NCBI GenBank assembly: GCA_944350325.1
Contig: CALVOS010000030.1
Location: 1-40,725, forward strand
Length of the DNA: 40,725 nt
Source: an uncultured Bacilli bacterium
Lineage (GTDB): Bacteria; Bacillota_I; Bacilli_A; RFN20; CAG-826
Direction of reading: 5' to 3'
Shown piece by piece: positions 1 through 30,187 of the stretch. Position 1 is the stretch's first letter. Each line of letters opens with the position of its first letter. A model generated the notes under the pieces. It saw nothing but the letters and a program-made list of their open reading frames with translations, ran no database searches and was not told the DNA's origin. A program made the position numbers and the translations under genes.

Positions 1-408
1 GTTCTCAAGCCGAACCCGTCCCCCTTCCTTGTCCCCAAGCGCCTTCTCAAGACTCCTGATCTCTTCCTCGGAGAGAGGGCGGACGCTATGGACGATACCT
101 CTCCTCGTCCCGTTCTTCTTATCAAGAAGCGAGAGATATCCCTCGCAAACCTCGGGCAAAAGGGAGATTTTCCTCTTCTTTGCCAAAAGAAGGAGCAAGG
201 AGAGGAGATGACTCTCCTTTATAGGGGAAAACGCCTTCCTGGCAAGGGACAGGCGTTCTTCCCCCTCCACGCGCGGAGACATGAGGACCTCGCGGAGTCC
301 AGGGGTGCCCTGGAGGATGTCGAGCGAAAGCCGGAGCTCGCCCTCAATGTCCTTCCCTTCCTCCAGAAGGAAGAGGGCCTCCCCATAGGACTTCCCGAGG
401 TCAGCCAT
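1..408 (-). CDS. atpH: ATP synthase F1 subunit delta (partial, C-terminus beyond window)
   Basis: Peripheral-stalk subunit that links the F1 head to the b subunits of F1Fo ATP synthase at the membrane. The reading frame opens at 408 (MADLGKSYGEALF) and stays open for 136 codons to the window edge, so the C-terminal part is missing. The N-terminus is the helical domain typical of the delta/OSCP family (YGEALFLLEEGKDIEGEL, then a helix with LREVLMSP). Its start overlaps the end of atpF by 8 bases and is preceded by a purine-rich stretch (GGGGGAGCGGAAGG), consistent with coupled translation. Position after atpF in the order I-B-E-F-H is the strongest evidence; sequence similarity alone would be moderate. 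Confidence 0.88.
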   Translation of the reverse strand, partial: MADLGKSYGEALFLLEEGKDIEGELRLSLDILQGTPGLREVLMSPRVEGEERLSLARKAFSPIKESHLLSLLLLLAKKRKISLLPEVCEGYLSLLDKKNGTRRGIVHSVRPLSEEEIRSLEKALGDKEGGRVRLEN

Positions 409-949
409 CCTTCCGCTCCCCCTGGATTTCCTTCGCGAAGCCCTCGAGGAGCGCGCGGTCCCTTTCCTCGTCCATCTTCTCCCCCAGGAGCTTCTCGGAC
501 ATGTGGAGGGCAAGGTCGACCGTCTCGTCCCGGAGGCGCGCGCGGGAGCGCTCCTCCTCCTGGCGGATCCTCTCCATCTCGCCCTTCTCGCGCCTTGCTA
601 TGTCATCCTCGGCGAGAAGCACCCGTTCCTCGCGGATCCTCTCCCCCTCGCGTTCCGAGGCCTTGAGGATTTCCGAGGAGCGCCTCTCGGCCTCGGAGAC
701 GATGTCCCTTGTCTCTTCTTCCCGACGTCTCCCTTCCGCAAGGAGCCTCTCGCCTTCCTCGCGCTCGCCCCTCATCTTCGCCCGGCGCGCGTCCACCAGC
801 CTCCGGAGAGGCTTGTAGGCGATGAAATAGAGCACGACGAAGAAGACGATGAGCGCCAGGAGGTTGATCAGGAGGCTCCAGAAGTTCGGGATGAGCTTGT
901 TGAGGAAATCCTCCGGGGTGAACGGCGTGTCGTTGACGAAGAGCGTCAT
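401..949 (-). CDS. atpF: ATP synthase Fo subunit b
   Basis: Membrane-anchored stator subunit of F1Fo ATP synthase. The 182-residue product has the classic layout: one N-terminal membrane span at about residues 24-46 (SLLINLLALIVFFVVLYFIA), then a long, highly charged Arg/Glu-rich helix that would form the dimeric b stalk, ending in a segment (ALHMSEKLLGEKMDEERD) like the delta-binding end of b proteins. The start at 949 has the Shine-Dalgarno sequence AGGAGAGG. It lies 9 bases after atpE and overlaps atpH. Length is slightly above the usual 155-170 residues. Confidence 0.95.
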   Translation of the reverse strand: MTLFVNDTPFTPEDFLNKLIPNFWSLLINLLALIVFFVVLYFIAYKPLRRLVDARRAKMRGEREEGERLLAEGRRREEETRDIVSEAERRSSEILKASEREGERIREERVLLAEDDIARREKGEMERIRQEEERSRARLRDETVDLALHMSEKLLGEKMDEERDRALLEGFAKEIQGERKDG

Positions 950-958
950 CCGCCTCTC

Positions 959-1201
959 CTAAGCGCGGCCGCCGAGGACGAAGAGGATGAGGATGGCCAT
1001 GATCAGGCAGTAGATGGCGGTCGACTCGTCGAGGGCGACGGCGATCATCATCGAGGACTGCAGCTTCTTCTGCATGTCGGGGTTCCTCGCCATGCCGTCG
1101 AGGGCATGGGCGCAGATGATTCCTTCCCCGATGGCGGAGAGGCAGCCGAACGCCACGCAGATCGAGCAGGCGATGGCGATGAGTCCGAGATTGATGTCCA
1201 T
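959..1201 (-). CDS. atpE: ATP synthase Fo subunit c, two-carboxylate type
   Basis: Rotor-ring subunit, 80 residues, two membrane helices joined by the conserved polar loop A-R-N-P (residues 38-41). Helix 2 holds the ion-binding acid in DEST (E59, S60, T61) with Y64 five residues after E59. Helix 1 has a second acid, E26, in AIGEG, where Na+-type c subunits usually have Gln. The E26-E59 spacing of 33 equals the 32/65 spacing of the known Na+ rotors of Ilyobacter (Q32/E65) and Fusobacterium nucleatum (E32/E65). This pattern suggests a Na+-coupled ring, which is inference. The start has a near-perfect Shine-Dalgarno (AAGGAGGT). Three Cys residues in helix 1 (C12, C15, C20) are unusual. Confidence 0.96.
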   Translation of the reverse strand: MDINLGLIAIACSICVAFGCLSAIGEGIICAHALDGMARNPDMQKKLQSSMMIAVALDESTAIYCLIMAILILFVLGGRA

Positions 1202-1234: not shown

Positions 1235-2077
1235 CTAGGAAACTTGCGGAGCCGGGCGAACCCCGAGGACGGGGATCTCCTCCTCCGGCTGCGGCACCTC
1301 CGCCCCAATCCACAGGGCGTTGAGGTTCACGAATACGAGCGTCTGGACGTAGCCGCTGAAGAGGCTGAAGTAAAGGTTCAGCACCCCCATCGCAAAGGGG
1401 GCGAGGAAGATCTCGGTCCAGACGTAGCTCTGGTTCTGGTCCCAGAAGGGCTGGTAGTTCACGTGCGCGGCCTCCGTCAGGCCGCCGACAAGGTCGAGGA
1501 GTCCGCCCGAGGCGGCGCCGAGCGCCCACTGGACGAGAGCGATGATGACCGTCCCGGCGAGGCAATTCCCCAGCATCCTCATCGTCGTGGAGATGATGGG
1601 GGTCCAGCAGGTGATGAGGTTGATGGGGAGCCAGATCTTGATGGGCTCGACGTAGCGATGGAAGTACCCCCAGCGATTCGTTCGGATGCCCTGGTACTGG
1701 ATGAGGACGAACATCACGAGGGCCAGGGAAAGGGGCGCGGCGATCCAGTCGACGATGGTCGGCAGCCCGAGCAGCCCCCAGTTGAAGGCGACGAAGAGAT
1801 AGCAGGTCAGCCCGAAAAGGTAAGGCTCCCACTTCCTTCCGTACTCATCCCCCATCCTTTCGGCGGAGAAGCCCTCGATTCCCTCGAGGAGCCATGTTCC
1901 GAGGAGAAGCACCCCATGCTCGGCCTTCTCGAAACTCTCCTCCTTGAGCGCCCTATGCGCCTTATAGCCAACGATTCCCCCGAGGATGAGGACGAGCAGC
2001 ATGCAGAGGAGAGAGCTATACAGGTTCGCGTCTAGGTTCCAGTCCATCATGGACGCGACCCGTTCCTCGAAGGTCAT
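1235..2077 (-). CDS. atpB: ATP synthase Fo subunit a
   Basis: Ion-channel subunit that works with the c ring. The 280-residue product is strongly hydrophobic, with several membrane spans. The essential arginine is visible in TTMRMLGNCLAGT (R167), matching the family motif L-R-L-F-G-N-x-x-A-G. A second conserved-looking region near the C-terminus (GVLNLYFSLFSGYVQTLVF) matches the last two helices of the family. The start at 2077 overlaps the stop of the upstream atpI-like gene (ATGA) and has GGAGGTGAAGGA just upstream; an in-frame extension farther upstream would overlap that gene and is not used. The sequence diverges clearly from common AtpB proteins, especially residues 60-140. Confidence 0.92.
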   Translation of the reverse strand: MTFEERVASMMDWNLDANLYSSLLCMLLVLILGGIVGYKAHRALKEESFEKAEHGVLLLGTWLLEGIEGFSAERMGDEYGRKWEPYLFGLTCYLFVAFNWGLLGLPTIVDWIAAPLSLALVMFVLIQYQGIRTNRWGYFHRYVEPIKIWLPINLITCWTPIISTTMRMLGNCLAGTVIIALVQWALGAASGGLLDLVGGLTEAAHVNYQPFWDQNQSYVWTEIFLAPFAMGVLNLYFSLFSGYVQTLVFVNLNALWIGAEVPQPEEEIPVLGVRPAPQVS

Positions 2078-2574
2078 TCCTTCACCTCCGAGCTCGGCTC
2101 GTCCTTCTTCTCGGGAGAAGCTCCCTTCTGCGCTTTGCGGAAGATCCTCCCTCCCTTGCCCTCGAGGTAGTGCATGAGCCAGGTAACGATGGGGAAGGGC
2201 AGGATCGCGACGAAGCAGGTGTAGAAGGAGAAGGCGTCGAATCCCCCGAACCAGTCCGGCCGGAAGGTGCAGATGGCGCTGACGAGGAGGACGGCGGCGA
2301 AAAGCACGAAGCGGAGCGAGGCCCCGAGGTAGACGCTCAGGACCCCCTTCCCGTCCTTCCCGAGAGAGGAGACCATCGCCCTCATGGAAAGGAAGCCGAG
2401 GATCTCGGCGAGGGACCCTAGGAGCCATCCGAGCGGGTAGACCCCATAGCTCCCGTTCTCGTCATGGAGCAGGAAGAGGGGGGTCAGCAAAAGGAAGCCG
2501 AAGACAGCGATCGCAAGAAGGATCCGGAATGTCTTTCCTCCCGCGTCCAGCTCTTTCCACTTCTTCCAGCGCAT
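2074..2574 (-). CDS. AtpI-like four-helix membrane protein, first gene of ATP synthase operon
   Basis: A 166-residue protein with four predicted membrane spans (about residues 17-36, 46-66, 78-104, 114-137) and a charged Lys/Glu-rich tail. Position directly before atpB and four-span topology match AtpI (UncI), a small protein thought to help ring assembly or Mg2+/ion supply, but I see no diagnostic sequence motif and it is longer than usual AtpI (about 120-130 residues). The start at 2574 (MRWKKW) was chosen because a -10 hexamer TAAAAT ends 7 bases upstream, matching other leaderless genes here; an alternative ATG at 2610 would place that hexamer inside the coding region. Ends in an ATGA overlap with atpB. 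Confidence 0.75.
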   Translation of the reverse strand: MRWKKWKELDAGGKTFRILLAIAVFGFLLLTPLFLLHDENGSYGVYPLGWLLGSLAEILGFLSMRAMVSSLGKDGKGVLSVYLGASLRFVLFAAVLLVSAICTFRPDWFGGFDAFSFYTCFVAILPFPIVTWLMHYLEGKGGRIFRKAQKGASPEKKDEPSSEVKE

Positions 2575-2581
2575 CGACGGA

Positions 2582-2587
2582 ATTTTA
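2582..2587 (-). promoter_or_regulatory. -10 element of ATP synthase operon (leaderless)
   Basis: Read on the minus strand: TAAAAT, then 7 bases (tccgtcg), then the ATG at 2574. No Shine-Dalgarno sequence lies between. Transcription would start at or next to the start codon. No convincing -35 box is visible. Confidence 0.6.
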
Positions 2588-2616
2588 CCCCGAAGTAGGT
2601 CCCAGGGCATAGTAAA

Positions 2617-2634
2617 TGTGTAAGCGCTTGCACA
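2617..2634. promoter_or_regulatory. cre-like / LacI-family operator between atp operon and nucleoside kinase gene
   Basis: TGTGTAAGCGCTTGCACA is an 18-base inverted repeat with 16 of 18 bases symmetric. The core TGTAAGCGCTTGCA closely matches the CcpA catabolite-responsive element (TGWAANCGNTNWCA) and other LacI-family operators. It overlaps the -35 box of the rightward nucleoside kinase promoter and lies about 50 bases upstream of the leftward atp start. Protein binding would be expected to block the kinase promoter; the effect on atp cannot be told from sequence. Confidence 0.65.
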
Positions 2635-2655
2635 GCAGATGGATGCTGATACAAT
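2628..2655 (+). promoter_or_regulatory. Promoter of nucleoside kinase gene
   Basis: TTGCAC (2628-2633), a 16-base spacer, and TACAAT (2650-2655) with an extended TG one base before it (2647-2648). The -35 box lies inside the cre-like palindrome. The transcript would have a leader of about 23 bases with the Shine-Dalgarno sequence GAGGAGG ending 6 bases before the ATG at 2685, unlike many genes in this window. Confidence 0.65.
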
Positions 2656-2684
2656 CAAAACCCGCCCCAAAGAGGAGGTTTTCG

Positions 2685-13466: not shown

Positions 13467-14071
13467 TCGATTTCCTCCACGAGGGCGACCGCCCGTTCCT
13501 CAAGGCGCCTTAAGGAAGGGAGGCGGACCCCTTCCAGGAACGCCGGAAGAATTTTAGCGCTTCCGCGAAGAAGGAAGCGAACCGACATGCCGAACTCCAG
13601 GCCCTGGACCAGGATCCCGCGGGAACGGGCGAGGTTCTCCATCTCCGCGAAATCCTTGTAGTTCGCGCTCATCTCGCACTCGATTCCCTTCTCTGTCCTA
13701 CCGAACCTAGCGCTTTCCATCGCCAGGCGCCCGGCCGCATCGTAGGCATGCATGAGACGTCCTGCCCCAAGGAGGACGCCGCCGAAATAGCGGGTCACCA
13801 TGAGAATCCCCCCATCGACGTCCTTCCCCCGAAGAAGCGAAAGGAGGGGCGCGCCCGCGCTCCCCCTCGGCTCGCCGTCGTCGGAGGATTTCTCCAAGGA
13901 AGCAAGGCGCAGGGCGTAGGCGACATGGCGGGCACCAGGATTCCTTGCCCGTTCCTCCTCAAGGAAGGAAAGCGCCTCCCCTTCCTCATGGATCGGCAGG
14001 AGGCGCGAAAGGAAGCGCGAGCGAAGGACGGCGACCTCGCCCCGGCCCTCGGAAAGGGGGAGGAGGCTCAT
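13463..14071 (-). CDS. yigZ: YigZ/IMPACT family protein
   Basis: 202-residue protein with the IMPACT N-terminal signature: HVAYALR, then SSDDGEPRGSAGAPLLSLL, then ILMVTRYFGGVLLGAGRLMHAYDAA. These match the conserved A-x-H-x-x-Y-R, D-D-G-E-P-x-G-T-A-G and RYFGG blocks of bacterial YigZ. The C-terminal part would be the small alpha-beta domain. The family is of uncertain function; eukaryotic IMPACT regulates Gcn2, while bacterial members are only structurally known. It overlaps both neighbours by 4 bases, indicating translational coupling. Confidence 0.9.
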   Translation of the reverse strand: MSLLPLSEGRGEVAVLRSRFLSRLLPIHEEGEALSFLEEERARNPGARHVAYALRLASLEKSSDDGEPRGSAGAPLLSLLRGKDVDGGILMVTRYFGGVLLGAGRLMHAYDAAGRLAMESARFGRTEKGIECEMSANYKDFAEMENLARSRGILVQGLEFGMSVRFLLRGSAKILPAFLEGVRLPSLRRLEERAVALVEEIE

Positions 14072-17000
14072 GCCCCCTCTCCCGGGCGAAGCCAGTCGGG
14101 AAGCTCGATGCCCGGGAACATCTCCTCGATCGTGTCCCAGACGTCCTCCGGGACCTGCTCAACGTAGTCCCCGACGTCCTCGGGGAGGTCGTCCGGCGAG
14201 GGGGCAAAGGAAAGCAGGGCCTCCTCAAGGGCGTCCGAGAAGGAGTCGTAGGGGGTCATCTTCCCGGCCTGGACGTCTTCCTCAGAGTGGAAGACCTCGC
14301 TCTCCTCCATGGAGGAAAGCAGGGACCTCGCGTTATAGCGCACGAGGCCGACCGCGATGTCGGGGTTCTCGACGAAGTAGTCCTTCGTAAGGCGGTTCTC
14401 CAGGGAGCCCTGATCGGAAACGAACCCGTAGACCGGGTCGACAAGGCAGCGCATCATGTCGACGAGGTTCCCGCATTCCTTCTCGACGAAGGAAAGGTGG
14501 GCGGGGTCGCGGTAGTCCCCGGAAAGAAGGTCGATGCGGGCGTTCTCGAATCCCTCGAAGCCGCCTTCGACCATCGCTTTCGAGAACTGCGAGAAGAAGT
14601 TCGGGATCATCGCCGGGCCGAAGGCCTTCGAATGGACGATGAGATCAAGCGCGCGACTTACGAAATCGATGTTCACGAAAGTGAGGTTCTGATCTTCGAT
14701 GAAGAAGGTCATCGAGGACACCTGCTCCATGCAGTAGAGGATATCCCCGATCGTCTCGGCCTCCTCCAGCCATTCCTCTCTCGTCATCGACTCGACGCTC
14801 GCGCGGAAGGTCTCGAAGGTGTAGGTGGGATTCCCGTCCTCGCCGAGCTGGGGGTCGAGGTCGGCAAAGAGCGAGGGGATGGAGCCGAGGTCCATCGTTT
14901 CGAAGCAGCGGATCATCTCCTCGGCAAGGAAGCGCGAGAAGCCATACTCCCCGTCCGTGTCGAAGAGGCTCGTCTGGCTCAGCCCTCCGACGAGCAGGCG
15001 GATGGCGTCGGGGTCGCTATTGAAGTAATCGATGGAGTCGAGGTCGGAAAGATACCTCGCCCCCTCCAGCGCACGGTCGAGCGCGAGACCTTCCCTGGCC
15101 CAGTCCTCGATGTTCGCGAAGGAGGCCCGCCCGCCGAGGAACGTCCCGGCAAGGACGTTTTCGTCAAGGAAGGAGGTCACGGCAAGGGAGAGGATGCGGC
15201 TCTCCCCGAGGGCGCCGAAGAGATCCTCGAAAGACAGGTTCGCGTAGTCGCCCAGGTTTGTCCCGGACATGATCACCATGAGGGCGTCCTGGCGATCCAG
15301 CTCCTCGACCACCCCCACGATGGAGGAAATCTCGCCCGTGATGTCGAAGGAGGGATCCCTTAGAACGGCGGAAGCCTCCTTCACAGAGTCCCCGAGGAGC
15401 GGGGTGAGGAAGGTCTCGAGAAGGCCCGCGATGTTCTGGTTGGCGAGAACCTCGCCATCCTGCTCCATCGTAGGATTGAGGACAGGCGAGGAGGCGATGG
15501 CGATGAGAAGGGTCCGGAACTCGTCTCCGTAGGAGGCGAGCCTCCGGAAGACGGCGCTCGTCTGCCCGCCGGTCGAAAGGCTCAGGGAGCCCATCCCCAT
15601 GAGATAGATGACGAGCCCTTGGGAATCGCGGTAGGCCGCGACGATCTTCGAGAGCTCGCTCCCGAGGTTCTCCACGTCAAGGTCGATCCCTGCCCGGAAG
15701 CCGAGGGCCTGAAGGGGAGAATCCTCTCCGGAGAGCATCCCGGAGAAGGAGGAGGAGAGCACCTCGGTTGCGATGAGGGAGCTGTCCATCCTGAGGAGGG
15801 CGGAGTCCAGGGCATCGAGAAGCCCGTCCTCGACCCCAAGGAGGGTTCCTTCCGGATCCACGTAGATTCCGGGCTGCGACTCGATGTCCTTGAGGAAGGC
15901 CTTCCCTTCCGGAACCTGGCAGAAGGAATCGACGATCGAAAGGAGGCTCCTCATCTCGTCCTGGATCCTCTTCATGGAAGGCGCGATCCCCTCCTCGCCC
16001 TCCTGCGGCCGGAGCGTATCGATGGCAAGGGAAAGGTCGGTCTCCATCCCCTCGCCCATATCGTTCATGGACTTCTCGAGCATCTCGAGGAGCTTCGGCA
16101 TCCCGCGGCAGAGGAGCTCCGAGCCAAGGAGAGAGGAAGAGGCCTCCTCCTCGTCGGCGCCCGCGATAATGGAGACCATCTCCGCGCTATGGTCGGCGAT
16201 CAAATCGAGGGCGAGGTCCATGAAATCGACCCCGGCCTCCTCTTCGCCAGGAGAGGAGGGCTCTTCCGTCCCCTCGCCCCCTTCCTCGGTCTTTGGGAAG
16301 AGGATGTCGAGAAGGAGGCCGGGCTCAAGCGCGTTCGCTCGAATGAGGTTGTTATAGAAGATGCCGAGCTCATGGCCCCAGTCGATCGCGAAGAACTCCT
16401 CGGGCACCGCGTCCGGGATCCCGTTCCCGTCCTGGTCCGGCTCATCGAAAGGAGGAAGGAAGTCGATGAGGCCGACCTCCCCGTAGCGATCCTCCTCGGG
16501 CGAGGCCCATTCCTTCGAGGCCATCACGTAGGCGACGGTGGCCAGGAGGTCGTTCACGAGCTCAAGGTCTTTCCCGGAAAGGGAGGAGAAGGTCTCCTCG
16601 AAGGCGGCGTCGAACTTACCGCTGAACGCCTGGTCGACCAGCGCCTCCCCCGCGCCATCCCCCTCTAAGTCGATGTCGTCAAAGAACCCGGAATCCTGGA
16701 ACGAGGAGAGGATGTCCGCGGCGGTGTCGAGGGTCACCTTGTAGTCGAAGGCGTGGAAGTCGATGCCGGCGTCGGTGAGAAGGTAGGTGCTCACCCCGTC
16801 GAAGTGCGTCACGAGGGTCAAGGCGGTCGGGAGGAGCGTGGTCACGAGCCCCGAGTTCCCAAGCGAGCGGATCATGTCCGGGAGGAAGACGGAGGAAAGC
16901 GCGGCAAGGTAGTCGAACGCGCCCCCATCCTCAGGGACGAGCCCGCTCTGGATGAAGAGGGAGAGGAGGTTCCCCCACGCCGGAAGCTCCGAAAGGAAGC

Positions 17001-17937
17001 TCACCGCGCCCTCGTGGCCCATCGTCGCGAAATAGTCGACGAGCTGGGTGTCGATGGTCACCCCGCTCTCGTCCTTGTTCCACGAGAAGAAGGCCTGGGC
17101 GAAGAGGCTTTCCTGGTAGACGTCGAGGAAGCCGTCGATCGTCTGGTACATGCCGTTCTCTTCGAGGAGCCCGACCTCCTCCTCGCTCGGGGAGGCGCTC
17201 TCCCAGCCCTGGGCCAGGGCGTTGAACATGGAGCTCAGCGGGAAGACGACGAGGCAAAGGGAAACGACGCCGCATAGCGCTCCCTCGAGGAGGGAGACGA
17301 GCCTTCCCTTGCGATAGGTCGCCTTCCTGTGCTTGACCTCGTAGTTCCCGTCGGAGCGCAGGCGCCAGAGCGACCTCTTCCTGTAGTAGCGCCTCCGTTC
17401 CTGGAACTTCTCCGGCGTAAGGACCTTCTTCTTCCGGATAAAGATGCGCTTGACGATGAGGTGCCAGAGGAGCCAGGAAAGGAACGCCCAGAGCGTGACA
17501 AGCAGGATTCCTTCCACGAAGAGCAGGACGACCGCGATGAGGGAGTAGGAGAAGTTCTCGGCGATCGTCGCAAGCTCCGAAGGATCGAGGTTCGTCCCAA
17601 GGGCCATGTACACCCTGGAGACGGCCTCGCGGATCATCTCGGAGAGGTTCGTCCACGGAACGACGATCGTCACATCCTCCACGACCACGCTGATCGGCTC
17701 GAGCCCGAGCCCGGAAAGATCAATGCCGCCAATGAAGTCCACCAAGGGGCGAAGGGTGAAGAGGGCAACGAGGGCGAAGCCAACGGTCATGACCAAGTGA
17801 TAGGTACCGTAGCGCCACCCACGGAAGAACCCTCGCAAGGCGGAGTAAATCAGGCAGACGACCAAGAGGGCGAAAAGAAGGATGAGCCCAATTGGGAGGT
17901 ACTGCTCGATGTAGGCGATCGCGCTGTCAAAATCCAT
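14068..17937 (-). CDS. Very large CvpA-like membrane protein with ~1050-residue acidic domain
   Basis: 1289 residues. The first 240 contain hydrophobic segments at about 14-35, 46-66, 130-162 and 216-238; the pattern S-A-L-R-G-F-F-R-G after the first span resembles the CvpA (colicin V production) membrane family, including basic loops (RIFIRKKK, RRRYYRKR). The remaining roughly 1050 residues are strongly acidic, helical-looking and contain no membrane span and no motif I recognise; repeated short patterns (LVDYF, FLDENVL, LLEDGL) suggest possible divergent repeats. The orientation of the large domain is not known. Start at 17937 chosen because a -10 hexamer (TAGGAT) ends 7 bases upstream and any longer frame would run into the divergent gene. 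First gene of the operon with yigZ and pepP. Confidence 0.8.
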   Translation of the reverse strand: MDFDSAIAYIEQYLPIGLILLFALLVVCLIYSALRGFFRGWRYGTYHLVMTVGFALVALFTLRPLVDFIGGIDLSGLGLEPISVVVEDVTIVVPWTNLSEMIREAVSRVYMALGTNLDPSELATIAENFSYSLIAVVLLFVEGILLVTLWAFLSWLLWHLIVKRIFIRKKKVLTPEKFQERRRYYRKRSLWRLRSDGNYEVKHRKATYRKGRLVSLLEGALCGVVSLCLVVFPLSSMFNALAQGWESASPSEEEVGLLEENGMYQTIDGFLDVYQESLFAQAFFSWNKDESGVTIDTQLVDYFATMGHEGAVSFLSELPAWGNLLSLFIQSGLVPEDGGAFDYLAALSSVFLPDMIRSLGNSGLVTTLLPTALTLVTHFDGVSTYLLTDAGIDFHAFDYKVTLDTAADILSSFQDSGFFDDIDLEGDGAGEALVDQAFSGKFDAAFEETFSSLSGKDLELVNDLLATVAYVMASKEWASPEEDRYGEVGLIDFLPPFDEPDQDGNGIPDAVPEEFFAIDWGHELGIFYNNLIRANALEPGLLLDILFPKTEEGGEGTEEPSSPGEEEAGVDFMDLALDLIADHSAEMVSIIAGADEEEASSSLLGSELLCRGMPKLLEMLEKSMNDMGEGMETDLSLAIDTLRPQEGEEGIAPSMKRIQDEMRSLLSIVDSFCQVPEGKAFLKDIESQPGIYVDPEGTLLGVEDGLLDALDSALLRMDSSLIATEVLSSSFSGMLSGEDSPLQALGFRAGIDLDVENLGSELSKIVAAYRDSQGLVIYLMGMGSLSLSTGGQTSAVFRRLASYGDEFRTLLIAIASSPVLNPTMEQDGEVLANQNIAGLLETFLTPLLGDSVKEASAVLRDPSFDITGEISSIVGVVEELDRQDALMVIMSGTNLGDYANLSFEDLFGALGESRILSLAVTSFLDENVLAGTFLGGRASFANIEDWAREGLALDRALEGARYLSDLDSIDYFNSDPDAIRLLVGGLSQTSLFDTDGEYGFSRFLAEEMIRCFETMDLGSIPSLFADLDPQLGEDGNPTYTFETFRASVESMTREEWLEEAETIGDILYCMEQVSSMTFFIEDQNLTFVNIDFVSRALDLIVHSKAFGPAMIPNFFSQFSKAMVEGGFEGFENARIDLLSGDYRDPAHLSFVEKECGNLVDMMRCLVDPVYGFVSDQGSLENRLTKDYFVENPDIAVGLVRYNARSLLSSMEESEVFHSEEDVQAGKMTPYDSFSDALEEALLSFAPSPDDLPEDVGDYVEQVPEDVWDTIEEMFPGIELPDWLRPGEGA

Positions 17938-17941
17938 GCTT

Positions 17942-17960
17942 CTTATCCTAGCAGGATAAG
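17942..17960. repeat. Perfect inverted repeat in divergent promoter region
   Basis: CTTATCCTAGCAGGATAAG: two 8-base arms (17942-17949 and 17953-17960) around AGC. It covers the leftward -10 box of the CvpA-like gene and sits just upstream of the rightward -10 box. It could be an operator or partly a by-product of the TAGGAT -10 sequence. Confidence 0.6.
17945..17950 (-). promoter_or_regulatory. -10 element of CvpA-like/yigZ/pepP operon (leaderless)
   Basis: Minus-strand TGCTAGGAT (extended -10 with TG), 7 bases (aagaagc), then ATG at 17937. The same TGCTAGGAT string occurs before the ppa start at 20155. Confidence 0.6.
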
Positions 17961-17972
17961 CGCCTCGCGTGC

Positions 17973-17978
17973 GACAAT
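17973..17978 (+). promoter_or_regulatory. -10 element of CPBP/TraX/trx operon (leaderless)
   Basis: GACAAT with an upstream TG (TGCGACAAT), 7 bases (aaccgcc), then ATG at 17986. No Shine-Dalgarno sequence. Confidence 0.5.
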
Positions 17979-17985
17979 AACCGCC

Positions 17986-18867
17986 ATGCAATGGGATTGG
18001 GCTAAGCAGTGGCTTGACGGATTCCGGCCCCATAAGTGCCCGGAGTGCGGGGCGGAGAGCGACCCGACGGAGACGAAGTGCCCTCGCTGCGGGAAGGACT
18101 TCGAGGCAACTCCCTTCATGCGCTCCTCCCGGAACCTTACCTTCCTCGGCGCCCCGAAGGAGCTTGCGCTCTCCCTCGGCGGATACGTCCTCCTCATGTT
18201 CGTGTCCCTCGTAGTGAGCCTCGCCGTGACCGCCCTCGCCCAGAGCGTCCTGTGGCAAGGGGGCCTCACGGGAGCCGCCCTTTCCGAGGCGCTATCGAAA
18301 TACCTTTCGAGCAGCTCCGCCCTCGCGCTGGTGAACTATTCCTCCTACGCGATCTTCCTTCTTCTTCTCGCCCTGTTCCTTTGGAAAGACTGGCCGAGGA
18401 TCCTGAAAAGCTTTCATTCTAAGAGGGTTTTGCTAGGATTTGCCTTTGGTGTCGGGCTTTTCCTCCTAAGCCTCGCCCTGTCCTCGCTCCTTGCGATATG
18501 GGCGGAGCCAAGCCAGAACCAGGAGACGAACGACCTCATGACGAAGGACTTCCCGGTCCTCGTCTTCCTGATGACGGTGTTCGTCGTCCCCATCGCTGAG
18601 GAGGCGATATACCGGCTCGGTCTCTTCTCCTTCCTCAAGAGGGTCAGCCCGATCCTCGCCTATGTCCTTGGCGCCATCCTCTTCGCCATGGTCCACATGC
18701 ATGACCTCTCTTCGGCGAACGAATGGCTCAACTTCCCCGTCTATCTCCTGGGCGGAGCGGTCCTTTGCGCCGCCTACGACCACTCCGGCATCGGAGGCTC
18801 CTACCTCGCGCACGCCACGTACAACGCGCTGGCGATCACGATCAACCTCATTGGGATCTTCGCCTGA
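17986..18867 (+). CDS. CPBP intramembrane protease with N-terminal zinc ribbon
   Basis: 293-residue membrane protein. The first 45 residues carry a zinc ribbon with two C-x-x-C pairs (CPEC and CPRC), then six to eight membrane spans. The C-terminal half matches the CAAX-protease/bacteriocin-processing (CPBP, Abi) family: IAEEAIYRLGLF supplies the E-E-x-x-x-R motif, FAMVHMHD the second and AHATYN the third. These would be the metal or catalytic residues of a glutamic-type intramembrane protease; the substrate is unknown. Start 17986 places the -10 hexamer 7 bases upstream. First gene of an operon followed after one base by the TraX-like gene. Confidence 0.87.
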   Translation: MQWDWAKQWLDGFRPHKCPECGAESDPTETKCPRCGKDFEATPFMRSSRNLTFLGAPKELALSLGGYVLLMFVSLVVSLAVTALAQSVLWQGGLTGAALSEALSKYLSSSSALALVNYSSYAIFLLLLALFLWKDWPRILKSFHSKRVLLGFAFGVGLFLLSLALSSLLAIWAEPSQNQETNDLMTKDFPVLVFLMTVFVVPIAEEAIYRLGLFSFLKRVSPILAYVLGAILFAMVHMHDLSSANEWLNFPVYLLGGAVLCAAYDHSGIGGSYLAHATYNALAITINLIGIFA

Positions 18868-18868
18868 T

Positions 18869-19774
18869 ATGAAGAAAGCGTCTCTCTCCGAATTCTGGCT
18901 CAAGTGCTTTGGGCTCCTCTTCATGACGGTCGACCACATCGGGGTCTTCCTCCAGGGCGATCCCGCCTTCGCCGACGGGAGCCTTCCCGACACCGTTGGG
19001 TTCTGGCTCCGCTGCGTCGGACGCCTGGCGATGCCCCTGTTCCTCTTCATGCTCGCGGAGGGGATGCATAAGACCCATGACCGCGAGAACTACCTGCTTC
19101 GCCTCGGAATCCTCTGGGGCGGGGTCTTTCTCGTGGAGCTAGGGCTCTACCTCATTCCCTCGACGCGCTACCTGAGCATGCCCCAGCCCTTCACGGACCT
19201 CATCCTATGCGCGCTCTTCGTCTATCTCCTGGAACGGAAGGAATGGTGGGCAAAGGCGCTCTCCGCGCTCCCCCTCGCATGGATTCTTGTCAGCTACGCG
19301 ACGGGCTTCGCGGAGGGGATGGAAGGCTATCTCGTCACGTGGACCGCCTACTTCCCGCCCTTCCTCCGGAGCTCCTATTCCCTCTACGCCCTCCTGGGCT
19401 TCCTTGCCTTCTACTACGGGCCCAAACTCGCCGATTGGATTCATGGGAAGGCTGCGATGCTCGAGGCGCAGGAAAAAGGAAGCGAGGAGGAAGGGGAAGG
19501 CGCGGACAAGGCGCCCCAGCGACTGAGGAACATGGTCTCCTCGCTCCTCTTCCTCGTCGCGGTCCTCGTCCTATGGGCAATCCACCGTCTCGCTCCGATC
19601 CCCGATCCCCTGTCGATGGGCCTCCAGACGTACGGGCTTCTCTCGCTCTTCCTCATCATTCCCTACGACGGGACCAGGGGGTACGACAAGAAGTGGTGGC
19701 GCTACTTCAACTACCTCTATTACCCCATGCATATCGCTATCCTCGCCCTCTCCTTCGGCCTTATGATCCTCTAG
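18869..19774 (+). CDS. TraX-like membrane protein
   Basis: 301 residues with many membrane spans. The N-terminus (FWLKCFGLLFMTVDHIGVFL and later RLAMPLFLFMLAEG) matches the TraX family (PF05857), named after the F-plasmid protein that N-acetylates pilin, a broad group of chromosomal membrane acyltransferase-like proteins in Gram-positives. The final region (YYPMHIAILALSFGLM) is also typical. A charged, low-complexity stretch (EAQEKGSEEEGEGADK) lies in one loop. It starts one base after the CPBP stop. The true acyl acceptor is unknown; no conjugation genes are nearby. Confidence 0.83.
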   Translation: MKKASLSEFWLKCFGLLFMTVDHIGVFLQGDPAFADGSLPDTVGFWLRCVGRLAMPLFLFMLAEGMHKTHDRENYLLRLGILWGGVFLVELGLYLIPSTRYLSMPQPFTDLILCALFVYLLERKEWWAKALSALPLAWILVSYATGFAEGMEGYLVTWTAYFPPFLRSSYSLYALLGFLAFYYGPKLADWIHGKAAMLEAQEKGSEEEGEGADKAPQRLRNMVSSLLFLVAVLVLWAIHRLAPIPDPLSMGLQTYGLLSLFLIIPYDGTRGYDKKWWRYFNYLYYPMHIAILALSFGLMIL

Positions 19775-23415: not shown

Positions 23416-24597
23416 CTAGTAGACGAACCACGCCTTGATGGCGCCCATCACGTGCAGGAGCTCTGCCTCCTGGCCGCGGTAGTTCGGGGCGACGTCCTTC
23501 GCCTCGATCACCGCCCCCGGAACCCCAGGAACGGAGTTATCCCCGCCCTCGACATAGTCGAAGTACTGGGCCCTCACGCCCGTCGCCCCAAGGACGGAGA
23601 TTTCCTCGCCCCCTTCGACGGATAGCGCCCAGCCATCCTCCGTACCCACGGAAAGAAGGGCCTCGGTATAGGGGACGTAGATGGTCCCGAGGCAGTTTGA
23701 GAGGGTCTCGTCCTCGTATACGTACACAGGGAAGTCCCTCGTCTCTCGCAGGTAGATCGTCTGAAGGTCCACGAAGGCAGACTGCCCCATGTTCCCGAGC
23801 CGATAGAACTCGTCGAGGTAGCGGAAGTAGAGGGGGTAGTCCTCGCTTGTGGGGTTCGCGACGTCCTCCGCGGGCAGCCCGAGGTAGAAGGACCCTTCCG
23901 GGCAGGAGGAGACGCTAGGCTCCCCCTCCCCCGAATGCCACGTGGCGGAAAGAAGGAGGGAGTCGACCGCCTTCAGCTCGACGCCGCTCGGGAGCGAGTC
24001 CACGAGGGGGCTGAAGTTATGCCCCAGGAAGGTTTCCTTCATCCCGTAGGGGGCGTAATCCTCCTTGGTCCCCTCAAGAAGGAAGGAAGAATCCCAGGCG
24101 TCCCCGTAGGAAAGCGTCATCGTGACGGGGTTCCCTTCCTCGTCCCGGACCGTCTCGCCCCGGTCGCTTTGGGAGAAGACGATCGAGAAGCTTTCCTCCC
24201 GGAAGGTCGCGTATACGTCGCAGTCGGCCCTTACGTTCGTGAGGTCGACCGCCATTCCGTCTAAGGGCAAGGATTCGGACGAAGAGAAGGAGTTGGATTC
24301 GGAATCGATGGAATAGGTACCGACCCAACTATCGAAAACCTTGTAGTTCCCCGGTGTTTCCGGTCTTTTTCCCGAACGAGACTGGTAGTCGTACTGCGTT
24401 TCGCCGACATAGCGGATCGAATCGAGCGCGTCCCGCCCCTCCACGACATAGCTGTAGGCGACGAGCTGAGGCTCTCCGGGAGTGTCGTCGAAAAACTGGA
24501 CCTTGTAGATGCCCTTGGCAAGGCTTCCTTCTTCCCCGCCCCCGCAGGAGACGAGCGCCAGGAGGGCGACAGGCAGGATATAGAGCACCTTCTTCAT
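23416..24597 (-). CDS. Predicted lipoprotein of unknown function
   Basis: 393 residues beginning with a lipoprotein signal: MKK, a hydrophobic core, and the lipobox LVSC with Cys at about residue 18 followed by GGGEEGS, so it should be lipid-anchored outside the membrane. The mature part is acidic and beta-rich; KGIYKVQFFDD and CDVYATFREESFSIVFSQ resemble internalin-B-type beta repeats found in surface proteins of Gram-positives, but the match is weak. It ends in a short tail (GAIKAWFVY). Leaderless start: GATAAT ends 7 bases before ATG. Likely a surface protein of narrow distribution. Confidence 0.78.
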   Translation of the reverse strand: MKKVLYILPVALLALVSCGGGEEGSLAKGIYKVQFFDDTPGEPQLVAYSYVVEGRDALDSIRYVGETQYDYQSRSGKRPETPGNYKVFDSWVGTYSIDSESNSFSSSESLPLDGMAVDLTNVRADCDVYATFREESFSIVFSQSDRGETVRDEEGNPVTMTLSYGDAWDSSFLLEGTKEDYAPYGMKETFLGHNFSPLVDSLPSGVELKAVDSLLLSATWHSGEGEPSVSSCPEGSFYLGLPAEDVANPTSEDYPLYFRYLDEFYRLGNMGQSAFVDLQTIYLRETRDFPVYVYEDETLSNCLGTIYVPYTEALLSVGTEDGWALSVEGGEEISVLGATGVRAQYFDYVEGGDNSVPGVPGAVIEAKDVAPNYRGQEAELLHVMGAIKAWFVY

Positions 24598-28732: not shown

Positions 28733-30187
28733 TCAGTCACCGATCAGCTGGGCAGGATCCTCTCCGTAGCGGACGTCGACGACGAGGGCGAAGTCCGAGC
28801 GGTCGCCGTTCCGGAAGAAGCAATAGGAATCGAAGCCTTCCTCCCCGGTCACCACCATGAAACAATCGAAGTCCGCCCTCTCCCCCACCGTGACGCCGAC
28901 GACATCCTCGAAGCGGAAGGCGATGTCGCAAGGACCTTCCCTCTTCTCGAAAAGGACCTTGCCCGCCTCGATGTCGACAAGAAGAGGCGCCCGCTCGAAA
29001 TGGCAGATGACCTCAAGCGACCCGTCCTCATCCGGATGGTCCTTCCTCACAAAGACGGCATGGGGAGTCCGGTCGAAGAGGCGGAAGCCCTCCTCGGCAT
29101 CGGAAAGAAGCGAGTCCGCCAGCACGAAGCCCGTGTAGGCGAAGGGCAGGCTCCAGTCGAACCGGCCCGCCCAATAGCGCTCCCTCGCCTCAGGAAGGCG
29201 CTTCTCGATCTTCCTGACGATGGACTCTATCCCAGGGTAGCCGACCTCGAGGCGCTGGGCGGCCTCGACGAAGTGAAGCGCGATGAGCCCGTAGAGGATG
29301 GCGGAGAAGTAGCTCTTCTCGTCGTAGGCCCTCTGGAACCAAAGGGCGAAAAGATAAAAGTAGGGCAAGGGCTGCAGGTCATGGAGGACCGACAGCATGG
29401 ACAGGAGGCCGGAGGCCTGCTTCCGGAGCGAGGCGCTCGCCACGAGAAGGTCCTTGTCCATCCCGATCCCGTACTCGTAGCAGTAGGCCAGGGCCAGGGT
29501 CGCCCACGGGGCGTTGAGGGCGACGGCGTCCGTGACGTACAGGATCAGGGAGTCGCCGTTCATCTCCAGCGTCTGGCCGCAGTAGGCGCGGGAAAGCTCG
29601 CTCCAGACCAGAAGCATGAGCTCATCGGGATCCAGGAAGAGGTCCGCGTTGTCCTCGAGGCACCGAACCGCCTCCCCAACATCGCGCCGGAATCCGAATT
29701 CGCCGCGAATAAGGGACTGGTAGCGAATCGCGTCCAGCATCTTCCGGGGGCCACGGGAAAGCCCCCCATGCTTGAGGAGGTCCGTAAGGGCGTCCCGGAT
29801 CGCCTCCTTCTCCTTACGCTTCAGCTCTCCGCTGGGGCGGTGCGAAGCGACGTAGACGAGGTAGGAGTAAAGGTAAGGGGCGAGCGCCTCGTCGATCGGG
29901 CGCTCCGCGACCAGGGCCTCCTGCATCGCGCGGAGGTCGTCCCAGCCCTTGTTCCCAAGGGCGCGAGACGGGATGACGAAGCTATTTCCGCAAACGGGGC
30001 AGCGGGCGCTGAGCTGCCCGTTCCCGTGCTCCGCCCAATCGTGGATATCCTTGGCGGGAAAGGTCTCGCAGCAGACGAGGCAGCCGCAAGTGCCTCCCTC
30101 GAGGATGTATCCGTCGTTGGCGCGCGTAAGGGCAAGGGCATCGAGCGCGTCTTTCCTCAGGGAGGATGGTTTTCTCTTTGATGCCAT
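28733..30187 (-). CDS. Zinc-ribbon protein with Sel1-like repeat, linked to ABC exporter
   Basis: 484 residues, cytoplasmic. Residues 31-70 carry a Cys-rich module (C34, C36, C39, C40, then C63 and C66 in CPVCGN) similar to the zinc ribbon of small bacterial proteins with the pattern C-x-x-C ... C-P-x-C. The middle is helical; PWATLALAYCYEYGIGMDKDL followed by A-S-A-S-L-R-K-Q-A matches a Sel1/TPR-like repeat. The last 130 residues are beta-rich with no motif I recognise. Leaderless start: TAAAAT ends 6 bases before ATG. It is first in the operon, touching the degenerate-site ABC gene, so it may regulate or sense the cargo of the exporter, which is inference. Confidence 0.7.
   Translation of the reverse strand: MASKRKPSSLRKDALDALALTRANDGYILEGGTCGCLVCCETFPAKDIHDWAEHGNGQLSARCPVCGNSFVIPSRALGNKGWDDLRAMQEALVAERPIDEALAPYLYSYLVYVASHRPSGELKRKEKEAIRDALTDLLKHGGLSRGPRKMLDAIRYQSLIRGEFGFRRDVGEAVRCLEDNADLFLDPDELMLLVWSELSRAYCGQTLEMNGDSLILYVTDAVALNAPWATLALAYCYEYGIGMDKDLLVASASLRKQASGLLSMLSVLHDLQPLPYFYLFALWFQRAYDEKSYFSAILYGLIALHFVEAAQRLEVGYPGIESIVRKIEKRLPEARERYWAGRFDWSLPFAYTGFVLADSLLSDAEEGFRLFDRTPHAVFVRKDHPDEDGSLEVICHFERAPLLVDIEAGKVLFEKREGPCDIAFRFEDVVGVTVGERADFDCFMVVTGEEGFDSYCFFRNGDRSDFALVVDVRYGEDPAQLIGD

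What the first reader, a model, noticed from the sequence alone, without database searches (positions are those of the whole stretch)
959..1201. ATP synthase c subunit with two membrane carboxylates, pattern of a Na+ rotor
Residues E26 (helix 1) and E59 (helix 2) are 33 apart, with S60, T61 and Y64 following. The same spacing and E/E/S/Y arrangement is the two-carboxylate Na+ motif known from Fusobacterium nucleatum (E32/E65); single-carboxylate Na+ rotors have Gln at the first site. In H+ rotors both the second acid and the S-T pair are usually absent. This suggests an Na+-coupled ATP synthase in a lineage where it would not be assumed. Three Cys in helix 1 add to the oddity.
Basis: partly seen in the sequence, partly recalled or inferred. 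Interest (0 to 1): 0.62.

Follow-up and report, generated by a model that had tools for sequence, protein, structure and literature searches.

The report
Sodium-type ATP synthase rotor, third acid
The gene encodes the rotor piece of a bacterial ATP-making motor that is probably driven by sodium; that motif turns out to be normal for this group of uncultured gut bacteria, but next to the essential glutamate these rotors carry a third, overlooked acid, and the stationary channel facing them has been rebuilt in the same lineage.

Summary
Window 959-1201 is atpE of a standard F1Fo operon. Gapless alignment to the Fusobacterium nucleatum c subunit (3zk1) puts E26, E59, S60, T61 and Y64 on Fn E32, E65, S66, T67 and Y70. 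All side-chain Na+ ligands are present, and the genome encodes Rnf genes. Na+ coupling is likely but unproven: the two-carboxylate ring of Burkholderia pseudomallei binds H+.

The motif is not exceptional. E26 is found in 124 of 130 c subunits sampled from the order, and Na+-type sites (mostly Gln at that position) across the class.

A scan of ~85,000 species genomes found A-[L/F]-D-E-[S/T]-T-[A/G]-I-Y in 51 c subunits, all from uncultured Bacilli. A coarse ring model points D58 inward, behind E26.

In the window's clade (39 of 39 stators examined) subunit a has lost the Asp and His otherwise near-invariant in its last helix (LHxYFD to LNxYFS) and gained an Asp (D110) found in none of 89 other order members. 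I read this as a two-carboxylate Na+ rotor with a third, second-shell acid and a remodelled stator: a new variant of a known kind.

The parts
959..1201 (-). atpE, F-type ATP synthase subunit c (80 aa)
   Evidence: Pfam ATP-synt_C 61 bits; TIGR01260 51.7 bits, over cut-off; AlphaFold2 helical hairpin, mean pLDDT 90; Foldseek hits are c-rings including 3zk1, 1yce and 4bem
1124..1126 (-). codon of E26, second carboxylate in helix 1 (Fn E32 / Ilyobacter Q32 position)
   Evidence: gapless phmmer alignment to 3zk1; E in 124/130 order c subunits
1025..1030 (-). codons of D58 (third acid) and E59 (essential carboxylate, Fn E65)
   Evidence: GAC GAG; across relatives both GAC/GAT and GAA/GAG are used, so the amino acids are what is kept; D58 in 40/41 clade c subunits
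1010..1024 (-). S60, T61, Y64: remaining side-chain groups of the Na+ site (Fn S66, T67, Y70)
   Evidence: distances for Fn from PMC3692424
1235..2077 (-). atpB, subunit a (280 aa), stator half-channels; essential Arg is R167
   Evidence: Pfam ATP-synt_A 93 bits; translation
1748..1750 (-). codon of a-D110, acid gained in the window's clade
   Evidence: D in 39/39 clade members, acid in none of the rest of the order
1364..1378 (-). codons of a-N234 to a-S238 ('NLYFS'), replacing the near-invariant 'HxYFD' 11 and 7 residues before Q245
   Evidence: clade N36/Q3 against H 86/87; clade S29/G4/T3/A2/other 1 against D 87/89
401..949 (-). atpF, subunit b (182 aa)
   Evidence: Pfam ATP-synt_B 73 bits
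1..407 (-). start of atpH (delta), cut by the contig end; start near 407 is approximate
   Evidence: frame open to the window's end following b; in sister locus L033 the gene after b matches OSCP
2074..2670 (-). small membrane protein upstream of atpB, in atpI position; no Pfam match
   Evidence: ORF overlapping atpB by 4 bases; same place in L033; no Pfam match

Best explanation
This is the c subunit of the only rotary ATPase found in a small-genomed uncultured gut bacterium (Bacilli, same family as Candidatus Alloenteromonas). Shown: it has the complete two-carboxylate Na+ ligand set of F. nucleatum, plus a third acid, D58, next to the essential E59. Inferred: each site binds one Na+ through E59 and E26 of one subunit and the L57 carbonyl, S60 hydroxyl and a T61-held water of the neighbour, and only Na+ is translocated. 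E26 keeps a proton throughout, as in F. nucleatum. D58 does not touch the ion. It points into the ring, behind E26, and acts as a mostly protonated second-shell hydrogen-bond partner that tunes E26 and E59. The enzyme would use the Na+ gradient made by Rnf, or make one by ATP hydrolysis in relatives without Rnf. In the window's clade the stator also changed: two largely conserved channel His became amides, and the Asp of the last helix (now S238) is lost while an Asp appears at D110.
For: Gapless alignment to 3zk1; published Fn site geometry and ligand comparison. Class-wide conservation of the Na+ residues. D58 seen only together with E26: 51 of 51 in the sampled set. rnfD, rnfG, rnfE on contig C96 of the window's genome and rnfCDGEA in sister G018. 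No complex-I/Mrp-type proton module, no membrane pyrophosphatase and no NhaC in 15 clade genomes. Clade-wide stator change in a clade supported at 1.0. Coarse c11 model restrained by published distances and the E. coli a-c crosslink face: residue 64 faces inward (163-177 degrees from outward), its C-beta about 6.3 A from the neighbouring Na+ and 3.9-6.3 A from the nearest residue-32 C-beta.
Against: No biochemistry exists. Two-carboxylate rings can be H+ selective. Several same-genus genomes have D58 but no Rnf and no OAD beta, so the rotor is not tied to a known primary Na+ pump, and Rnf can pump H+ in some bacteria (own knowledge). The conserved Pro28 of Fusobacterium is S22 here. The ring model uses ideal helices and an assumed c11, so it gives direction but not hydrogen bonds; without the crosslink restraint the opposite ring hand fitted slightly better. 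D58 and the stator change do not track one-to-one: other genera have D58 with the usual stator, and G010 has the new stator with C58.
Confidence: 0.6

Rival explanations
1. The ring is H+ coupled under physiological conditions. The second and third acids carry constant protons and the hydroxyls only stabilise a protonated E59, as in the B. pseudomallei N-type ring.
For: B. pseudomallei ring has Glu30/Glu61 and Tyr66 but is H+ selective; S. pneumoniae and M. tuberculosis are H+ enzymes with two carboxylates; some D58 relatives lack Rnf and OAD; c-rings characterised so far are in themselves H+ selective and Na+ coupling depends on Na+ excess.
Against: B. pseudomallei has Met where predicted Na+ rotors have a polar residue; here it is Thr (Cys in some relatives). 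In the window's clade the stator lost the two largely conserved His that could relay protons, replaced by amides. The full Na+ ligand set is kept across much of the class.
Confidence: 0.22
2. D58 is a functional third carboxylate of the ion path: E26, D58 and E59 share protons so that the site carries extra negative charge, changes Na+ affinity or the number of charges moved per step, and works with the relocated stator acid.
For: D58 nearly fixed in the clade (40/41); several gains or losses on the stator tree (8 changes), always with E26; clade stator lost its one near-invariant last-helix acid and gained D110.
Against: The model puts D58 on the inward face, away from the stator; the second carboxylate of F. 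nucleatum is constitutively protonated and not co-transported; D58 lineages with an unchanged stator exist.
Confidence: 0.12
3. D58 is tolerated variation at a position that accepts A, V, T, S, C, I or D, without functional meaning.
For: The position varies within the order and mitochondrial c subunits have Ser there (own knowledge).
Against: A buried acid in a membrane helix is costly, yet it is kept in 40 of 41 clade members with both Asp codons in use.
Confidence: 0.06

Closest known systems
Fusobacterium nucleatum two-carboxylate Na+ c-ring (3zk1/3zk2; Schulz et al. 2013, PMC3692424)
   Same: E/E pair at the same spacing, S-T after the essential Glu, Tyr five residues after it; gapless alignment
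   Different: window has Asp (D58) at Fn Ala64, Ser (S22) at Fn Pro28, and an N-terminus about six residues shorter; ion specificity not measured
Ilyobacter tartaricus / Acetobacterium woodii Na+ c-rings (1yce, 4bem)
   Same: the other Na+ ligands and the fold
   Different: Gln instead of Glu at the helix-1 site; no Asp before the essential Glu
Burkholderia pseudomallei N-type c17 ring (Schulz et al. 2017, PMC5376962)
   Same: two carboxylates and a Tyr
   Different: that ring binds H+ and has Met where the window has T61; the window gene lies in an ordinary F-type operon

Membership tests
F-type ATP synthase subunit c | helical hairpin matching ATP-synt_C, inside an atp operon | tested here: met
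   full operon a-c-b-delta-alpha-gamma-beta in sister G018, followed by an 88-aa ORF in the epsilon position
Two-carboxylate Na+ rotor (F. nucleatum type) | Glu at both ion-site positions (Fn E32 and E65) | tested here: met
   gapless alignment
Two-carboxylate Na+ rotor (F. nucleatum type) | Ser/Thr66, polar residue at 67, Tyr70 | tested here: met
   S60, T61, Y64
Two-carboxylate Na+ rotor (F. nucleatum type) | Na+ binding and Na+-only translocation measured | not testable with these tools
   needs NCD-4 labelling and transport assays
Na+-based energy metabolism | a primary Na+ pump in the same genome | tested here: inconclusive
   Rnf genes present but Rnf may pump Na+ or H+; no OAD beta in the window's genome
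N-type ATPase (B. pseudomallei type) | alternate atp operon in addition to an F-type one | tested here: not met
   only one ATP-synt_C gene in the genome; NCBIfam alternate-F1F0 models score far below cut-off

The most novel reading that the evidence does not exclude
A three-carboxylate rotary ion site (E26-D58-E59) that has evolved together with a stator whose channel acid was moved and whose conserved His were replaced by amides, giving a motor with an altered ion path, affinity or charge per step.
Probability: 0.15. Interest if true: 0.75.

Novelty: new variant of a known kind. Interest (0 to 1): 0.45.

Why it matters
What sets Na+ against H+ use in ATP synthases, and which residues of subunit a form the half-channels, are long-standing questions. 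This order offers a natural series in one background: position 58 is A, V, T, S, C, I or D while E26 and E59 stay, and one clade shows stators with N/S plus a new D110 in place of H/D. Swapping these residues would test what the channel acid and a buried second-shell acid do. It also suggests that Na+-type F-ATPases are the norm among these uncultured gut Bacilli; a 2020 survey of related lineages (PMC7301438) discussed Rnf only as a proton pump.

Tried and rejected
Plus-strand reading of 959-1201: an antisense frame, rejected. Cys as a functional feature: not conserved. D58 strictly coupled to the stator change: rejected, since seven other genera have D58 with LHxYFD, and G010 has the changed stator with C58. 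D58 tied to Rnf: rejected, G004, G007, G012 and G029 have D58 without Rnf. First ring model without an outward-face restraint: its best fits had the wrong hand, with the crosslinked face inward; rejected and redone. AU test for a single origin of D58 did not finish. The a-subunit match to solved structures did not give a trustworthy alignment of the last helix, so equivalence of a-S238 to E. coli H245 rests on its distance from the conserved Gln (7 residues), and equivalence of a-D110 to E. coli D119 is approximate.

Full report
What is there. The feature lies on the minus strand. Reading that strand, the window's left end carries a small membrane protein, atpB (a, 1235-2077), atpE (c, 959-1201), atpF (b, 401-949) and the start of atpH, cut by the contig end. 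A sister genome, G018, whose c subunit is identical, has the full order a-c-b-delta-alpha-gamma-beta plus an 88-aa ORF in the epsilon position. The window's genome (1.24 Mb, 108 contigs, 94.6% complete) has one ATP-synt_C gene, so no second rotary ATPase was found. From the literature and memory the order is probably GTDB RFN20; the tools did not name it.

The observation. phmmer aligns the window protein with the F. nucleatum c subunit 3zk1 over 72 columns without a gap. That puts E26 on E32, L57 on V63, D58 on A64, E59 on E65, S60 on S66, T61 on T67, Y64 on Y70 and S22 on P28. In the F. nucleatum structure Na+ is bound by E32, E65, the V63 carbonyl and S66 of the neighbour, and a water held by T67 and the A64 carbonyl, with Y70 bonding E65 (PMC3692424). 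Every side-chain group is therefore present. AlphaFold2 gives the expected hairpin (mean pLDDT 90) and Foldseek returns c-rings.

How unusual is the two-carboxylate motif? In 130 single-hairpin c subunits of the order, position 26 is E in 124, D in 4 and M in 2. In 69 from the rest of the class it is Q in 60, E in 7 and L in 2. E59 with S/T60, S/T/C61 and Y64 is present in 41/41 of the window's clade, 78/89 of the rest of the order and 51/69 of the class sample. The Na+ motif is thus normal here, with the switch from Gln to Glu marking the order. Published alignments of two-carboxylate and related rotors already include Bacillota (Figure S1 legend of PMC3692424).

The third acid. D58 sits directly before the essential Glu. 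A pattern for A-[L/F]-D-E-[S/T]-T-[A/G]-I-Y run over one genome for each of 84,980 species gave 59 stretches; translating each shows that 51 are c subunits, all from uncultured Bacilli or Erysipelotrichaceae-labelled genomes, and 8 are unrelated chance hits. The pattern would miss D58 in other sequence contexts. In the sampled set D58 is in 40/41 of the window's clade (g1 plus g23), 11/89 of the rest of the order and 0/69 of the class sample, always with E26 (51 of 51). Both Asp codons are used. On trees of subunit a built without the ion-path columns, D58 changes 8 times, so it was gained or lost repeatedly.

Where D58 points. I built a coarse c11 ring of ideal helices restrained by the published Na+ distances. 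With the face that crosslinks to subunit a in E. coli (own knowledge of Jiang and Fillingame 1998) required to point outward, only one ring hand fits (penalty 1.05 against 40.6). In the 14 best solutions residue 64 faces inward (163-177 degrees), with its C-beta 6.2-6.6 A from the neighbouring subunit's Na+ and 3.9-6.3 A from the nearest residue-32 C-beta. D58 would sit behind E26 as a second-shell partner. The model shows direction only.

The stator. Subunit a carries H and D, 11 and 7 residues before the conserved Gln of the last helix (LHxYFD...Q), in 86/87 and 87/89 of the order outside the clade and in most of the class. In all 39 stators examined from the window's clade these are N/Q and S/G/T/A or, once, N (window N234, S238). 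The same 39 have a new Asp (window D110), absent from the rest of the order, Thr or Val three residues before the essential Arg (R167), and mostly Gln 16 residues after it; a further His position (84% His or basic in the rest of the order) is mostly Gln, window Q127. By distance from the Gln, S238 matches E. coli H245, which can be exchanged with E219 (PMC5214741); D110 lies near E. coli D119 (approximate). The clade is supported at 1.0, so this is one event. It does not coincide exactly with D58: seven other genera have D58 with the usual stator, and G010 has the new stator with C58. The simplest order is D58 first and the stator change later, with C58 a later loss.

Ion source. The window's genome has rnfD, rnfG and rnfE on contig C96, cut by the contig end; sister G018 has rnfCDGEA, a short rnfB-like gene and apbE. 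No proton-pumping antiporter-type module, membrane pyrophosphatase or NhaC was found in 15 clade genomes, and no OAD beta in the window's genome. This fits Na+ coupling but does not prove it: Rnf may pump H+ elsewhere, and several D58 relatives have no Rnf.

Judgement. Shown: gene, operon, ligand set, third acid, stator change, their distribution. Inferred: Na+ as coupling ion, the role of D58, the functional link to the stator. Against certainty stands the B. pseudomallei ring, predicted Na+ from sequence yet H+ selective; it differs at the Thr67 position, where it has Met. I file this as a new variant of the known two-carboxylate Na+ rotor.

Noticed in passing
L177:524-3454:- and L178:8614-11661:-: The RnfG-position protein is 976-1015 aa, about five times the usual length, with repeated units resembling each other; only its N-terminus weakly matches the RnfG models.
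   Followed up: partly
G018:C1:36789-37016 and relatives (L229, L230): RnfB in this genus seems reduced to about 110-125 aa, matching only the first half of TIGR01944 and below its cut-off, so the C-terminal iron-sulphur part appears missing.
   Followed up: partly
L178:7297-8610:-; also G032 and G052: The genome search reports both Rnf-Nqr matches (rnfE, rnfA) in one open frame of about 438 aa in G018, G032 and G052, while L178 lists two separate ORFs; a possible fusion or an artefact of how the open frame is reported.
   Followed up: no
G010 (L017): The one genus member with Cys instead of D58 has a Na+-decarboxylase beta subunit (OAD_beta) and no Rnf.
   Followed up: no
window 14068-18258 (-), 28733-30187 (-), 23416-24597 (-), 18466-19050 (-): Long open frames, up to 1396 aa, without any Pfam match.
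   Followed up: no
L133, L134, L135, L146 (genus g20): c subunits with Asp instead of Glu at position 26 (motif A-D-G) and Ser at position 58: another variant of the two-carboxylate site.
   Followed up: no
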